This document shows, piece by piece, positions 22,969-29,362 of a stretch of 64,000 bases of DNA (within the stretch, counting starts at the first letter, position 1; each line of letters starts with the position of its first letter). Source of the DNA: an uncultured Pelagibacteraceae bacterium (GTDB lineage Bacteria; Pseudomonadota; Alphaproteobacteria; Pelagibacterales; Pelagibacteraceae); NCBI GenBank assembly GCA_902593285.1, contig CACJHW010000004.1:1-64000 (forward strand), given 5' to 3'. The position numbers were made by a program, and so were the translations under genes. Below the pieces are notes generated by a model. The model did no database searches. It was not told the origin of the DNA and saw nothing but the letters and a program-made list of their open reading frames with translations.

Positions 22969-24036
22969 TTATTTATTTTTCTCCATCAACCATAAGCTAT
23001 TTCCCGCAAGAAAATATATTTTTCCATTAACTGGGTGAACTTGTATATCTCTTATTCTCCCAATTTTATCTTTGAAAATAATTGTTTCTTCAATCTTAGA
23101 TGAATTTTGAAAGTTTAATTTTCTCATTGATTTATCTTTTAAAGAAGTAATAAGCGCTTCTCCATTCCACTCATTAAATTCATTTCCCTTATAAATAGTT
23201 ATAGCACTTGCTGCTATTGAAGGTACCCAGTATTGGATTGCTTTGGTAAATCCAGGTTTCCATTTAGGTCCAATCTTTGACCCTGAATAATTTGTTCCAC
23301 CCCAACCTAAAATTTTCCAACCATAATTCTCTCCCTTTTTTACTTCACCAAACCAATCACCACCTTTTGCACCATGGTTGCTTGCATAAATTTTTCCATC
23401 AAAAGAGGAATAGGTTAGACCTTGAGGATTACGAACACCAATTTGATAAATTTCTGGTAACCAGTCTGATTTACCTTCAAACTTAGGGTTATCCTTTGGA
23501 ATACTACCATCTAAATAAATTCTGATAATACTTCCAGGATGTTTTGTTGGATCTTGAGCAATCATACCTCCACCTCTTTCTCCAGCAGATGCAAAAAGAT
23601 AACTATCTTTTATAGCTAGTCTGGAACCGAAATGATAACCGGATTCTATTGGTGGTTCAGCTTGAAATATATTTTTAAAATCTAAATTTTTTTTATTTAA
23701 TTTGGCTTTTGCAATCGAGGTGCTTGTTTTCCAATTTCCTCTATTTTCTGAATAAGATATCCATAAGTAATCATTTTGATAAATAATATCTAATAAACCT
23801 CCTTGTCCGTGTACAAAATAATTTAAGTTATGTTTAACTTCGTAGGCTTCTTTAGAAGTAATATTTACTATTTTTATCTTTCCGGTTTTTTCAGTGATAA
23901 TTAATTCTTCATCATTAATAAAAGATAATCCCCAAGGTTCATTTAATGATACTAATTGTATAAAATTATAATTTTTAGAGTATGAAAGTGAAACTTTAGT
24001 AAAAAAAATTATTATAATTAAAAGAATAAACCTCAT
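22969..24036 (-). CDS. PQQ-dependent sugar dehydrogenase, six-bladed propeller
   Basis: 355 residues with a Sec signal peptide (hydrophobic about 3-17, cleavage near SLSYS). Motifs of the soluble aldose dehydrogenase family: LNEPWGLSFI, HGQGGLLDI, YHFGSRLAI with the putative catalytic His, SAGERGGG, RNPQGLTYS, NHGAKGGDWFGE and NYGWKILGWG. It would oxidise aldoses in the periplasm using PQQ and pass electrons to the respiratory chain. No PQQ synthesis genes are visible here. Located 3 bases from the adenylating-enzyme gene. Confidence 0.88.
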   Translation of the reverse strand: MRFILLIIIIFFTKVSLSYSKNYNFIQLVSLNEPWGLSFINDEELIITEKTGKIKIVNITSKEAYEVKHNLNYFVHGQGGLLDIIYQNDYLWISYSENRGNWKTSTSIAKAKLNKKNLDFKNIFQAEPPIESGYHFGSRLAIKDSYLFASAGERGGGMIAQDPTKHPGSIIRIYLDGSIPKDNPKFEGKSDWLPEIYQIGVRNPQGLTYSSFDGKIYASNHGAKGGDWFGEVKKGENYGWKILGWGGTNYSGSKIGPKWKPGFTKAIQYWVPSIAASAITIYKGNEFNEWNGEALITSLKDKSMRKLNFQNSSKIEETIIFKDKIGRIRDIQVHPVNGKIYFLAGNSLWLMEKNK

Positions 24037-24039
24037 AAA

Positions 24040-24750
24040 TTATATTAATCTACCTTGAATATAAAATTCATTAGTTTCATTTTTTTTTACTCGATCTCTT
24101 GTATCAAACCAATTATTTCCAAAAACACTTATATCTCCTTTTACATGTAGTATGCCTTTTTCAATTTTTGTATCACAGTAAACATCATCTCCCATTAAAG
24201 TTCCTTCTAGCGCTCTCTTTTTATAATCTTTAACTGCATCTATATCTTTAAAAACAGTGTTAATTGCACAAGGCCCAATTTCAGTCATGCCCCAATTAAC
24301 CATAAATTGACAACCTTTTTCGACAAATTTTGTTATTAATTCCCAATCCACCGGTTCACTACCACAGGTAATCCATATACCTTTTAAATTTAAATCTTGA
24401 AATGATTTAGTTAACATTATAGCTCTACCGTGTTTTGGTGTAATGTGACTGTGAGTAAAGTTTTTAATTTTTTTACAAAAATTATAAGCATTAAAATTTT
24501 CAATTTCTATGTGTGCTCCTACCTCATAGCCTGGTAATGTTTGTGCCAAAAGTCCACCAGCATGTTCTAATTTACAAACTGTATAAATTTTACTTTTAGG
24601 TGAAATTTTTTGACATTCACGTGCAATCTTATTTGCGTGTTTAAGCTTATTAGGAGTTTGATAAATCTTTTTTTGTGGACCTGTGGTACCACTTGATTTT
24701 AGTTCAATTCCTTTTTTTAAAATGAGAGCCAAATTGTTTTTCTGTTCCAT
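24040..24750 (-). CDS. Minimal AMP-binding (ANL superfamily) enzyme, two-end truncated
   Basis: 236 residues, less than half of a normal acyl-CoA synthetase. It begins almost at the ATP P-loop (SSGTTGPQKK, 19-28), has a WGMTEIGP adenylate-site motif and DTRDRV, the ATP-ribose Asp, and stops right after YIQGR, the hinge motif before the mobile C-terminal domain. The usual 100-150 N-terminal residues and the C-terminal thioesterification domain are absent. ATG 24750 is preferred over TTG 24768. It overlaps the DUF6356 gene by 47 bases and abuts the next gene, so it is not an obvious frameshift remnant. It may adenylate a carboxylate or act with a partner. Confidence 0.75.
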   Translation of the reverse strand: MEQKNNLALILKKGIELKSSGTTGPQKKIYQTPNKLKHANKIARECQKISPKSKIYTVCKLEHAGGLLAQTLPGYEVGAHIEIENFNAYNFCKKIKNFTHSHITPKHGRAIMLTKSFQDLNLKGIWITCGSEPVDWELITKFVEKGCQFMVNWGMTEIGPCAINTVFKDIDAVKDYKKRALEGTLMGDDVYCDTKIEKGILHVKGDISVFGNNWFDTRDRVKKNETNEFYIQGRLI

Positions 24751-24925
24751 CAACAATTTTTTTTGCAAGTTTGTAAGGTGTAAAAGTAAAAATCCATGGT
24801 AAGATACTGTGTATCATACCTGTGATTAAAATTAGAAGTGCCAAGAAGTTAAAATAGCTTGCATACAAAAAATGTTTTAACCAAGAAGATTTGATTTTTG
24901 TAAGATGTTTTAAGTCCCAATCCAT
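24704..24925 (-). CDS. DUF6356 small membrane protein
   Basis: 73 residues from ATG 24925. DLKHLTKIKSSWLKHFLYA followed by a hydrophobic segment (about 22-44) with GMIHSILPW and a C-terminal FTPYKLAKKIVDG, a pattern I recognise as DUF6356, a family of unknown function. It lies one base after the SDR gene and overlaps the AMP-binding gene by 47 bases. Confidence 0.75.
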   Translation of the reverse strand: MDWDLKHLTKIKSSWLKHFLYASYFNFLALLILITGMIHSILPWIFTFTPYKLAKKIVDGTEKQFGSHFKKRN

Positions 24926-24926
24926 T

Positions 24927-25637
24927 TTAAGAAAGTTTAGATCTACCACCATCAACAGCAATTATTTGGCCTGTAACCCAAGAACTATCTTCTGTTAGTA
25001 AGAATTTAGCTAGAGCGGCAGAGTCTTTACCTTCGCCTAATCTTTTAAGGGGGTGTGCTTTTGCAATACCTTCGGCTATAGCAGTATTTTTTAACATTGG
25101 TTCTGCTATTTTAGATTTTGTTAAACTTGGTGCCACACAATTTACTCTTATGTTCGGAGCAAATTCTGCTGCAAGAGAAACCGTCAATCCTTCAACAGCA
25201 GCTTTTGCTGAGGCTATGATTGCATGGTTAGTAAAACCTCTTTGAGCAGCAACGGTTGAAAATAATACTATCGAACCTTTATTTTTTTTTAAACTTTCTT
25301 GAAATCCTTTAATAGCTTCTACAGCAGAATAAAGATTAAGTTTCATGCATTTTTGAAAGTCTTGTTCATTCACCATTCTTAATGGTTTTAAATCAATTGA
25401 ACCCACGCAATAAGCTAGGCCTTTAATTTCAGAAATATCTGATTTAACTTTTTCTATAAACCCATCCTCCAAAACATCCGCAACGGTATGTGAGCATCCA
25501 AGTTTTTCAGAGATAGAACTAAGTTCACTTTCATTTCTTCCAACTAAATGAATATTGTTTCCAGAGTTTTTTAATTGTTCCGCTAAACTTGATCCAATAG
25601 AACCTGTCGCACCAAAAATTACATATTTTTCTGACAT
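24927..25637 (-). CDS. SDR-family protein lacking the catalytic Tyr
   Basis: 236 residues of Rossmann fold with the NAD(P) loop GATGSIGSSLAE (9-20), GRNE (33-36), the NL(Y) helix near 101 and a catalytic-type Ser127. The usual YxxxK motif reads IASAK (141-145): Lys145 is there but the Tyr is Ile. The rest, including RVNCVAPSL and GQIIAVDGG, is standard. It may be a degenerate or non-classical SDR. SDR proteins of this kind sit next to photolyase genes; here it is divergent from one with a 27-base gap, which suggests shared regulation. Confidence 0.85.
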   Translation of the reverse strand: MSEKYVIFGATGSIGSSLAEQLKNSGNNIHLVGRNESELSSISEKLGCSHTVADVLEDGFIEKVKSDISEIKGLAYCVGSIDLKPLRMVNEQDFQKCMKLNLYSAVEAIKGFQESLKKNKGSIVLFSTVAAQRGFTNHAIIASAKAAVEGLTVSLAAEFAPNIRVNCVAPSLTKSKIAEPMLKNTAIAEGIAKAHPLKRLGEGKDSAALAKFLLTEDSSWVTGQIIAVDGGRSKLS

Positions 25638-25664: not shown

Positions 25665-27155
25665 ATGAAGTTATTTTTTATACTTGGTAATCAATTATTT
25701 CCAATAAAATACCTAGACCGCTTCAAAAAAGACCACCTATTTTTTATGGCTGAAGATAAGGGTTTATGCACTTATGAAAAGCATCATAAACAAAAAATTT
25801 TATTATTTTTATCTTCAATGCGTTCTTATGCTGATGGGTTAAAAAAAAACAAATTTAAATTAGATTATTTTAAAATTGAAGACAAAGAATTTAATGATGA
25901 TTATTTAAAAAAATTAAAAAAAATAATTACACAAAAAAAAGTAAAAGAAATTTCAAGTTTTGAAATAGAGGATAAATTTTTTGAAAAAAAAATTTTACAA
26001 TTTTTAAAAAAAGAAAAAATACACTGGAATATTGTTCAAACTCCTATGTTTTTAAATTCAAGAGCTGAATTTAAAAATTATTTATCAAAATCAAAAAAAC
26101 CTTTTATGGCAACTTTCTATAAAGATGTTAGAAAAAAATCAGGAATACTGATGGGTTCAGATGGTAATCCAATCGGGGGGAAATGGAGCTTTGATGAAGA
26201 TAACAGAAATAAATTACCTAAAAAAATTTCAATTCCTAAATTTCCAAAAATAAATGAAACCAATCATACAAAAAAGCTAAAGCCTTTTATTGAAAAGGAA
26301 TTTAAAAATCACCCCGGTAGCACAAATAATTTTTGGTTTGCAACTGAATATGAGGACGTTGTTAAACTTTTAAATTTTTTTATAAAAAAAAAATTAAACT
26401 TATTTGGTGATTATGAGGATGCAGTTGATCAAAAAGATAATATTCTATTTCATAGTGCATTAAGTCCTTATATAAATTTAGGTTTAATTACTCCTGAATT
26501 TGTTATCCAAAAAATTTTAGATTTTCATAAAAAAAATAAAATTAGAATGAATTCTTTAGAGGGCTACATTCGCCAGGTGATTGGTTGGCGAGAATTTATG
26601 CGTGGTATTTATCAGTCCTATTCTCAAGAAATGGAAACTGGAAATTTTTTTAAACAAAATAGAAAAATGAAAAGTTCTTGGTATGATGGGACCACTGGTC
26701 TTCCGCCTTTGGATTATGCAATTAAAAATGCTGTTAATAATGGTTGGTCACATCACATTGAAAGGTTAATGATCTTATCCAACATTATGAACCTTTGTGA
26801 AATTAAGCCAACAATTGTTTACAAATGGTTCATGGAAATGTTCGTAGACTCTTCAGATTGGGTGATGGTTCCTAATGTTTATGGAATGGGATTATTTAGT
26901 GATGGAGGAATTTTTGCGACCAAACCTTATATTTGTGGATCTGCATATTTTATGAAAATGATGGATTTTAAAAAAGGTGAGTGGTGTAACACTATGGATG
27001 GTCTTTATTGGAGATTTATCGACCGAAATAGAAAATTTTTTTTAAAAAATCCTCGTCTTTCGATGATGGTAAGAATATTTGATAAAATGAAATCTGATAG
27101 AAAAAAATTAATTTTATCTGAAGCTGATAAATTTATTAAACTAAATACAATTTGA
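25665..27155 (+). CDS. Prokaryotic (6-4)-type photolyase / cryptochrome-like protein
   Basis: 496 residues of the deoxyribodipyrimidine photolyase-related family (PhrB/CryB group). Start is FFILGNQLFP; the antenna half covers about 1-180 and the FAD-binding helical half about 190-490, with EGYIRQVIGWREFMRG, the active-site pair His363-His364 in SHHIERLM, and ATKPY plus LYWRF near the end. It would repair UV photoproducts or sense blue light using FAD. The CxxC and upstream Cys normally holding a 4Fe-4S cluster are not seen; only Cys441 in EWCNTMDGLYW matches. The gene shares one base with a DUF2256 gene. Confidence 0.9.
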   Translation: MKLFFILGNQLFPIKYLDRFKKDHLFFMAEDKGLCTYEKHHKQKILLFLSSMRSYADGLKKNKFKLDYFKIEDKEFNDDYLKKLKKIITQKKVKEISSFEIEDKFFEKKILQFLKKEKIHWNIVQTPMFLNSRAEFKNYLSKSKKPFMATFYKDVRKKSGILMGSDGNPIGGKWSFDEDNRNKLPKKISIPKFPKINETNHTKKLKPFIEKEFKNHPGSTNNFWFATEYEDVVKLLNFFIKKKLNLFGDYEDAVDQKDNILFHSALSPYINLGLITPEFVIQKILDFHKKNKIRMNSLEGYIRQVIGWREFMRGIYQSYSQEMETGNFFKQNRKMKSSWYDGTTGLPPLDYAIKNAVNNGWSHHIERLMILSNIMNLCEIKPTIVYKWFMEMFVDSSDWVMVPNVYGMGLFSDGGIFATKPYICGSAYFMKMMDFKKGEWCNTMDGLYWRFIDRNRKFFLKNPRLSMMVRIFDKMKSDRKKLILSEADKFIKLNTI

Positions 27156-28008: not shown

Positions 28009-28226
28009 ATAATAAAATTTTTGAATGGGCAGGGGTTATAACTGCAATATTGTATTCTTTGTTTGTCGCTTTAAATATAGGCATAGAATTTTTCGGTTTT
28101 TGTCTGCTGTTATTGTCAGCTATTTTAATTGGAATTTGGGCCTATAGAGGTGGTCATAAAGGGATTTTATTTTTGCAATTTTTTTATGCAACCGCTGGAA
28201 TTATTGGGATGGTTCGTTGGTTTTAA
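28005..28226 (+). CDS. Small membrane protein, unknown
   Basis: 73 residues with about three hydrophobic segments (8-26, 28-46, 52-70). GHKGILF and YATAGIIGMVRWF are visible, a loose resemblance to PnuC-like or nicotinamide-related small proteins that I do not rely on. The ATG overlaps the amidotransferase stop (ATGA); its end overlaps the convergent photolyase-like gene by 4 bases. Confidence 0.65.
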   Translation: MNNKIFEWAGVITAILYSLFVALNIGIEFFGFCLLLLSAILIGIWAYRGGHKGILFLQFFYATAGIIGMVRWF

Positions 28227-29362
28227 TTAAAGCTTGAAACTATTTTGGGAATATAATTTTTAAAATTAAAAAAACCTTTATTGCAGTATTGCCAAGCCAA
28301 TAGATCAAGATTTCTATATAAAAAATCCATCTTTAAATTATTAGAATTTAAAAAATCTAAATTTTCACCTACAGTCGGATATAAACCGTAATAATTTTCA
28401 ATATTTGTTAATTCACTTATATCTATAATTTGACAATCAATAGATTGATTTTTTAATCTTTGTTCTTGGTCTTCTATTAAATGAGATTTAAATTTCACTA
28501 ATTTTTCACTGAGTTTTATTGCTCTATTTTCATTTTTATTTGAAACTAAGTAAATTTTCTTAAAATCGATTTCCTTAAAGTCAGTGATTTCAAACGAGAG
28601 ATTATTTTCAAAAATTAAAAGATTCTTATTCTCAATATTTTGTGGGTTATTGAAATCCTGTTTAATTATTTGGTAAGATTTTTCAGATACTTTTGGAGGA
28701 GCATTTTGATTTAATTTTATATTTTGAAATCTATTGTTAGTGAATTTTTTAATATTCCATTCACTTGCAAGGTAGTGTTTGCCCTGAGTTTGAACTCCAG
28801 CCACCCATCGCCATCCAAGAGTATTTGATGCAGCATCTCCATCATAAAGATGTTGCATAAAAAATTCTGCCCCTAATTGCCAAGGTAATTCTAGGGTAAA
28901 AATCCAAATACTAGCAAACCACATTCTTGTATGGTTATGTAAATAATTATTTTCTTTTAGCTCGTTTATCCATTCATTAAAGCAATCTATTTTTGTTTTT
29001 CCCTCGATTGCTGCAATATAATCTTTATTATCTTTAAATTCATTTTTTATTTGATTTAATTCGATAAGATAATCAACCCAAACATTCGGTCTAAGTTCTA
29101 ACCAACCTTTCCAATAAGTTCGCCACAGAACTTCTTGTATAAACTTTTCATTTTTTGAAAAAGAAAATTTACTTAGAGCTTTCTGAATGACTTCTTGTTC
29201 ATTAATTATTCCATGAGTTATGTATGGTGATAAGCAAGATATATTGGATCTTTTTTCAGGTCCAAAATCAAAATTTCTTAATTTTGAATACTCTACAAGA
29301 TTATTCTCAACAAAATTATTTAATTGATTTAAGGCCTTAGCCCTTGAAGCTTCAAATATCAT
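28223..29362 (-). CDS. FAD-domain-first photolyase-like protein
   Basis: 379 residues. The N-terminal part (to about 215) is the FAD-binding helical domain of photolyases: LSPYITHGIINEQEV, QEVLWRTYWKGWLEL, NYLHNHTRMWFASIWI and the signature FFMQHLYDGDAASNTLGWRW, ending TQGKHY. The alpha/beta antenna domain that normally precedes it is absent, and instead about 150 residues with alternating strands and helices (NLLIFENNLSFE, KIYLVSNKNENRA, CQIIDISEL) follow. Whether this is a permuted antenna-like domain is unclear. Function could be photolyase, light sensing or a flavoprotein role. It faces the photolyase/DUF2256 run convergently. Confidence 0.8.
   Translation of the reverse strand: MIFEASRAKALNQLNNFVENNLVEYSKLRNFDFGPEKRSNISCLSPYITHGIINEQEVIQKALSKFSFSKNEKFIQEVLWRTYWKGWLELRPNVWVDYLIELNQIKNEFKDNKDYIAAIEGKTKIDCFNEWINELKENNYLHNHTRMWFASIWIFTLELPWQLGAEFFMQHLYDGDAASNTLGWRWVAGVQTQGKHYLASEWNIKKFTNNRFQNIKLNQNAPPKVSEKSYQIIKQDFNNPQNIENKNLLIFENNLSFEITDFKEIDFKKIYLVSNKNENRAIKLSEKLVKFKSHLIEDQEQRLKNQSIDCQIIDISELTNIENYYGLYPTVGENLDFLNSNNLKMDFLYRNLDLLAWQYCNKGFFNFKNYIPKIVSSFN

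What the first reader, a model, noticed from the sequence alone, without database searches (positions are those of the whole stretch)
24040..24750. Minimal adenylate-forming enzyme ending exactly at the hinge
At 236 residues it retains P-loop, adenylate-site and DTRDRV motifs but lacks the usual N-terminal 100-150 residues and the entire C-terminal domain, ending just after the hinge Arg (YIQGR). With neighbours 3 bases downstream and a 47-base overlap upstream, this looks like a selected compact form. It might only adenylate, with transfer done by another protein, or use a split partner.
Basis: partly seen in the sequence, partly recalled or inferred. Interest (0 to 1): 0.55.

Follow-up and report, generated by a model that had tools for sequence, protein, structure and literature searches.

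The report
Conserved half-size adenylating enzyme in SAR11
Some SAR11 ocean bacteria keep a half-size version of a very common acid-activating enzyme that has lost both its front end and its moving catalytic lid, and it sits in the same small gene cluster beside a photolyase-like gene, so it looks like a real retained protein whose chemistry still has to be tested.

Summary
Window 24040-24750 (-) encodes a 236-aa ANL-superfamily protein that begins 18 residues before the P-loop and stops two residues after the hinge Gly-Arg. It is not a local truncation: 25 loci (the window's own included) give 18 distinct proteins, 17 of 236 aa and one of 237. In four sequence groups an upstream in-frame stop fixes the start within 0-5 codons. 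The gene is under purifying selection. The order photolyase-like gene / SDR - DUF6356 - mini-ANL - GSDH is kept in 16 of 16 loci while most outer genes differ. No free-standing C-terminal domain was found in nine incomplete carrier genomes, so a split ANL partner is unlikely. AlphaFold2 predicts a confident ANL core fragment (pLDDT 92), but only with trimmed ANL homologues in the alignment (53 without). Solved chain 4gs5 (350 aa) suggests that N-terminal reduction has a precedent; loss of the C-domain is the unusual part. ATP-site motifs survive, but the catalytic-Lys domain is gone and motif III reads T-[RK]-D. Most likely it is an adenylate-binding, perhaps slowly adenylating, core working with cassette partners. 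New variant of a known kind; function inferred.

The parts
24040..24750 (-). mini-ANL: 236-aa ANL core from P-loop to hinge Gly-Arg
24670..24699 (-). P-loop (A3) region, residues 18-27, KSSGTTGPQK
24274..24297 (-). adenylate-site motif (A5), residues 152-159, NWGMTEIG; E157 invariant in 39 aligned ANLs
24088..24108 (-). motif III (A7), residues 215-221, FDTRDRV; Asp219 invariant in 39, usual Gly replaced by Arg/Lys
24043..24054 (-). hinge Gly-Arg and last two residues (GRLI); C-terminal domain absent after this
24704..24961 (-). DUF6356 small protein (PF19883), overlaps mini-ANL by 47 bases; found in the same sampled Pelagibacter genomes
24927..25637 (-). SDR protein without the catalytic Tyr (Ile at Lys-4); next to DPRP in 4 of 7 other loci
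22969..24036 (-). GSDH (PF07995) glucose/sorbosone dehydrogenase-like protein, 3 bases downstream
25665..27155 (+). DPRP photolyase-related protein (PF04244), divergent from the SDR

Best explanation
A retained, doubly reduced ANL core protein. Shown: it consists only of the part of the ANL N-domain from P-loop to hinge, is conserved at fixed length in a subset of Pelagibacter, is under purifying selection, and travels in a five-gene cassette (DPRP / SDR-DUF6356-mini-ANL-GSDH). Inferred: it binds ATP or an acyl-/aryl-adenylate and a small carboxylic acid with the usual residues (P-loop, H63, E157, D219, R234) and acts without the moving C-terminal lid, making or holding the acyl-AMP slowly and passing it to a cassette partner. 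The 47-base overlap with DUF6356 makes that small, by eye hydrophobic, protein the first partner to test. The setting beside a photolyase-like gene suggests a role in light or photo-oxidative stress.
For: Fixed length in 18 distinct proteins. Median dN/dS 0.108 over 169 of 171 pairs of 19 sequences, the other two dropped as too close or unusable. pN/pS from the window to 15 loci has median 0.245, the same as the neighbouring GSDH gene, 0.243. The ATP-site residues are present: of nine columns invariant in 39 aligned ANLs (14 mini, 25 other), E157 and D219 were not part of how the 25 were picked; S20 G21 T23 G24 K27 G233 R234 were wholly or partly required by my selection pattern, so their invariance there is no test. 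The motif III Asp binds the ATP ribose across the superfamily (PMC3438747, passages). AF2 pLDDT 92.1, pTM 0.89; VIA best Z 22.4, 226 residues at 2.5 A; the 50 rows shown are ANL-type enzymes as far as their titles tell. Cassette order 16 of 16. DUF6356 occurs in 3 of 151 sampled genus genomes, and these three carry the mini-ANL.
Against: The C-domain with its lysine (motif A10, role recalled) is absent. FadD23 without its C-domain is almost inactive (PMC9989471, passages). Motif III is T-[RK]-D: in Acs, Gly to Ala at this place cut turnover over 200-fold (PMC3438747, passages), although ANL fragments from viral contigs also have TKD or TND (L154, L170, L168, L184). AF2 with mini forms alone gives pLDDT 53.4, so the good fold leans on other ANLs trimmed to the same stretch. 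Substrate, hand-over and partner have no direct evidence.
Confidence: 0.5

Rival explanations
1. Non-catalytic binding or regulatory protein: the ANL pocket now only senses a carboxylate, an adenylate or ATP/AMP, and controls a cassette partner.
For: Catalytic C-domain absent; motif III Gly replaced in the mini forms aligned; the FadD23 N-domain alone is almost inactive.
Against: ATP-site motifs are kept, E157 and D219 among them, although the protein is so conserved within the clade that this is a weak test.
Confidence: 0.33
2. Half of a split ANL enzyme: a separate protein supplies the missing N-terminal and/or C-terminal parts and restores full acyl-CoA or acyl-transfer chemistry.
For: Both missing pieces are large; mini-ANL and DUF6356 overlap and co-occur.
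Against: 0 free-standing PF13193 among 5 matches in the own genome and 28 in eight carriers, all in frames of 503-703 aa. DUF6356 is a general alphaproteobacterial family (28 of 142 class genomes), with no mini-ANL relative in the other 29 DUF6356 loci, about 1.5 kb to each side. Limits: genomes 66-92% complete, no search for the missing N-terminal part, and the PF00501 genome search missed even the mini-ANL itself.
Confidence: 0.1
3. Decaying pseudogene or remnant of a full-length acyl-CoA synthetase.
For: Large deletions at both ends relative to normal ANLs.
Against: Open frame of fixed length in 25 of 25 loci at median pS 0.53 from the window, low dN/dS.
Confidence: 0.03

Closest known systems
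ANL acyl-CoA synthetases (FadD/4CL/MenE/luciferase-like; PF00501)
   Same: P-loop, A5 and A7 motifs, hinge Gly-Arg and predicted N-domain core fold; best NCBIfam profile PRK06187 long-chain fatty-acid-CoA ligase, E 3.6e-11 but 42 bits against a cut-off of 476
   Different: First ~170 profile positions and the whole C-terminal domain missing; stretch between A6 and A7 shortened; T-[RK]-D in place of T-G-D
4gs5, 350-residue acyl-CoA synthetase-like chain of Dyadobacter fermentans (solved)
   Same: Model residues 1-236 span chain residues 21-247 (Z 19.5, 3.3 A, 221 aligned), a span of about the model's own length, while most other rows span some 320-380 residues; this points to a similarly short N-terminal part
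   Different: About 100 more residues follow the aligned part, which I take to be a C-terminal domain; not among the 13 chains found by the mini-ANL sequence profile at E up to 10
A0A6J5L770, 214-aa AMP-dependent synthetase/ligase of an uncultured Caudovirales phage (BFVD)
   Same: Similar size and fold, TM 0.73 by query and 0.80 by target
   Different: 19% identity; may be a contig fragment; not examined further
N-domain structures of FadD23, FACL13, BasE
   Same: ANL N-domain seen without C-domain
   Different: Constructs, or crystals with no visible C-domain, of full-size enzymes; they keep the whole N-domain

Membership tests
ANL superfamily (PF00501 N-domain) | Profile match over cut-off | tested here: met
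   41.1 bits, cut-off 29.9, partial (170-333 of 384)
ANL superfamily (PF00501 N-domain) | P-loop, A5 Glu, motif III Asp, hinge Gly-Arg | tested here: met
   All present in the 14 mini forms of alignment A4
ANL superfamily (PF00501 N-domain) | Fold | tested here: met
   AF2 pLDDT 92.1 and VIA Z up to 22.4; the alignment included trimmed ANLs; pLDDT 53.4 without them
Acyl-CoA synthetase (two-step ligase) | C-terminal domain with catalytic Lys (PF13193) | tested here: not met
   No PF13193 match in the protein; genome matches lie only in long ANL frames
Acyl-CoA synthetase (two-step ligase) | Thioester formation with CoA | not testable with these tools
   Needs an assay
NCBIfam ANL models (menE, FadD and others) | Score over the curated cut-off | tested here: not met
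   12 families at E up to 1, each far below its cut-off; best 42 bits against 476
DVU_1553 family compact ANL (NF045666, 331 aa) | Score over cut-off 300 | tested here: not met
   23.6 bits
4gs5-like N-terminally short ANL | Same N-terminal reduction in the fold | tested here: inconclusive
   Aligned range 21-247 fits a near-colinear alignment, but only first and last residues were seen
4gs5-like N-terminally short ANL | Common descent by sequence | tested here: inconclusive
   4gs5 is not among the 13 chains matched by the mini profile at E up to 10

The most novel reading that the evidence does not exclude
The mini-ANL is an active lid-less adenylating enzyme, one of the smallest natural ANL catalysts, which forms an acyl-AMP without a C-terminal domain and hands it to DUF6356 or the Tyr-less SDR in a light-stress cassette of SAR11.
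Probability: 0.15. Interest if true: 0.75.

Novelty: new variant of a known kind. Interest (0 to 1): 0.45.

Why it matters
ANL enzymes are known as two-domain machines whose C-terminal domain is thought necessary for efficient catalysis. A protein that selection has kept without that domain, and without the first part of the N-domain, is a natural test of what the minimal ANL core can do. It also marks a conserved five-gene cassette, linked to a photolyase-like gene, in one of the most abundant groups of ocean bacteria.

Tried and rejected
Local truncation or pseudogene: rejected. Normal-length orthologue in relatives: none seen. At E up to 1e-7 the 22 other matching genomes of 385 in the class sample, and at E up to 1e-9 the 3 others of 180 in the phylum sample, show only frames of 480 aa or more. 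In one search, 13 of 201 genus genomes matched: 4 are true (own, G174, G061, G139); 8 are ordinary frames of 473-512 aa at E 2.0e-4 to 9.2e-4; 1 (G038, L011) lies antisense to an SDR-like ORF and I take it for chance. Phage copies: no match in 50,697 phage records, and the viral-contig scan by two short peptide patterns had 154 pattern hits, 0 relatives. One plasmid record matched, partly (69%, 28.9% identity, 'AMP-binding protein').

Other C-less ANLs in my control set: 3 of 48 complete frames from viral contigs end within 222 residues after the P-loop. Read by eye, none of the three (L135, L159, L182) reaches motif III and the hinge in register; they break off earlier and look damaged, so they are no parallel. 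DUF6356 as the missing C-domain: rejected (its own Pfam family). First AF2 run with 17 mini forms: pLDDT 53.4, not used for fold searches. The second used 14 of those plus 25 of 38 non-redundant ANL fragments; the 13 others were dropped by eye for odd ends or as acetyl-CoA-synthetase or NRPS types.

Papers: eight searches; four found nothing, and of the others I saw 20 of 42, 10 of 29, 15 of 26 and 10 of 34 papers as titles and abstract starts. None seen describes such a form; only open-licence papers are held. PMC9989471, PMC3438747, PMC10522769 and PMC3686209 were seen as passages only; the photolyase passages of the last concern Prochlorococcus or general DNA repair and were not used.

Full report
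What is there. On the - strand at 24750-24040 a 236-codon gene codes an ANL (AMP-binding) protein. It overlaps the upstream DUF6356 gene by 47 bases and ends 3 bases before the GSDH gene. Its Pfam match covers profile positions 170-333 of 384; aligned to other ANLs it runs from 18 residues before the P-loop to two residues past the hinge Gly-Arg. Among 48 complete ANL frames from viral contigs the shortest stretch before the P-loop, counted from the preceding stop, is 94 residues; the window's frame has 38 by that count and 17 from its ATG. Three of the 48 end early, but in mid-fold and not at the hinge (by eye). The close relatives found in genome contigs are all titled 'uncultured Pelagibacteraceae' (16 of 16 loci). 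Base composition is like the neighbours (GC 0.298, third-position GC 0.156).

It is a fixed form. In 25 loci, the window's own included, there are 18 distinct proteins, 17 of 236 aa and one of 237; seven pairs of loci hold the same protein, reached by two searches. In L004/L039 and L044 the preceding stop touches the ATG; in L034/L042 one codon and in L035/L037 five codons lie between, so no much longer N-terminus is possible there. Median dN/dS is 0.108 over 169 of 171 pairs of 19 sequences (L034 and L042 are identical proteins and both counted). Measured from the window to 15 loci (L024, 99% identical, left out), median pN/pS is 0.245, against 0.243 for GSDH, 0.137 for SDR, 0.156 for DUF6356 and 0.123 for DPRP. 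It evolves like an ordinary working gene, at the looser end of its neighbours.

Distribution. 4 of 201 genus genomes; 5 of 397 in the family sample with a full-length copy plus one partial; 6 of 397 in the order sample. These samples overlap and include the own genome, so they are not to be added. The partial copy, in G321 of another genus of the family, has 54% identity over 114 aa, the same start, and a contig end inside the gene; its neighbours are a methyltransferase, an MBL-rhodanese protein and a LigB-type dioxygenase. The other 22 genomes sampled from that genus had no match. That bin is listed as 74% complete with 5% contamination, so the contig may not be its own.

The cassette. In 16 of 16 loci the order is DPRP (divergent), SDR, DUF6356, mini-ANL, GSDH. 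Of the window's outer genes, MBL, AEC and the hydrolase appear in 2 of 16, TauD in 5 and the second photolyase-like gene in 5 (at least L030 and L033 are cut short by contig ends). In the class sample the SDR has relatives in 7 of 105 other genomes at E up to 1e-30; DPRP lies within about 1.5 kb in 4 of these 7, and none has a mini-ANL there. On a Mesorhizobium plasmid the SDR sits among a cryptochrome/photolyase gene, a photolyase, msrPQ and a cyclopropane-fatty-acid-synthase-like gene; a Spirosoma plasmid copy does not show this in 5 kb. This suggests, without proving, a light or oxidative-stress setting in which SAR11 recruited the mini-ANL.

No split partner seen. The own genome (79% complete) has five PF00501 and five PF13193 matches, the latter all in frames of 533-703 aa. 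The mini-ANL itself was not picked up by that PF00501 genome search, so a weak orphan piece could also be missed. Eight carrier genomes (66-92% complete) have 28 PF13193 matches, all in frames of 503-703 aa. I did not search for an orphan N-terminal part.

Structure. AF2 on 17 mini forms gave pLDDT 53.4. On 14 mini forms plus 25 trimmed ANLs it gave 92.1 and pTM 0.89, so the confident fold leans on the homologues. VIA-align's best row is 5ie2, a plant enzyme that one search lists as an oxalate-CoA ligase, Z 22.4 over 226 residues at 2.5 A; the 50 rows shown are ANL-type enzymes by title. One row, 4gs5 (350 residues), has the aligned range 21-247, which suggests an N-terminally short ANL with a solved structure; that chain continues about 100 residues further.

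How it may work. The ATP-site motifs are present. Nine columns are invariant in the 39-sequence alignment (S20, G21, T23, G24, K27, E157, D219, G233, R234), but all except E157 and D219 were wholly or partly required when I chose the 25 comparison sequences. His63 of motif A4 (role recalled: lines the acyl pocket) is invariant in 17 mini forms. Two things speak against a normal catalyst: the missing C-domain lysine, and T-[RK]-D at motif III, where Gly to Ala in Acs lowered turnover over 200-fold (PMC3438747, passages). FadD23 without its C-domain is almost inactive (PMC9989471, passages). I therefore rate an adenylate-binding, perhaps slowly adenylating core with partners at 0.5, a non-catalytic sensor at 0.33, a split enzyme at 0.1 and a remnant at 0.03.

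Known or new. It belongs to the ANL superfamily by profile, motif and predicted fold, but lacks the C-domain of acyl-CoA synthetases and reaches no NCBIfam cut-off among its 12 matches. Eight paper searches in an open-licence library showed me no such natural form. A 214-aa phage protein in BFVD has a similar size and fold and could be a second case or a fragment.

Noticed in passing
24927-25637 (-): The SDR next to DPRP lacks the catalytic Tyr: residue Lys-4 is Ile or Val in 4 of 4 aligned members, while Lys145 and His138 are invariant. DPRP lies beside an SDR relative in 4 of 7 other alphaproteobacterial loci.
   Followed up: partly
28223-29362 (-): A 379-aa photolyase-like ORF matches only the FAD_binding_7 domain (residues 74-198), with no N-terminal photolyase domain match and about 180 residues after it; a second unusual photolyase-type gene near the cassette.
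   Followed up: no
L105 3-344 (-): Divergent mini-ANL (54% over 114 aa) in G321 beside methyltransferase, MBL-rhodanese and LigB-type dioxygenase genes; contig ends inside the gene.
   Followed up: partly
L033 164-1664 (-): DPRP is in two overlapping frames in this locus only, one of 16: a frameshift or assembly error.
   Followed up: no
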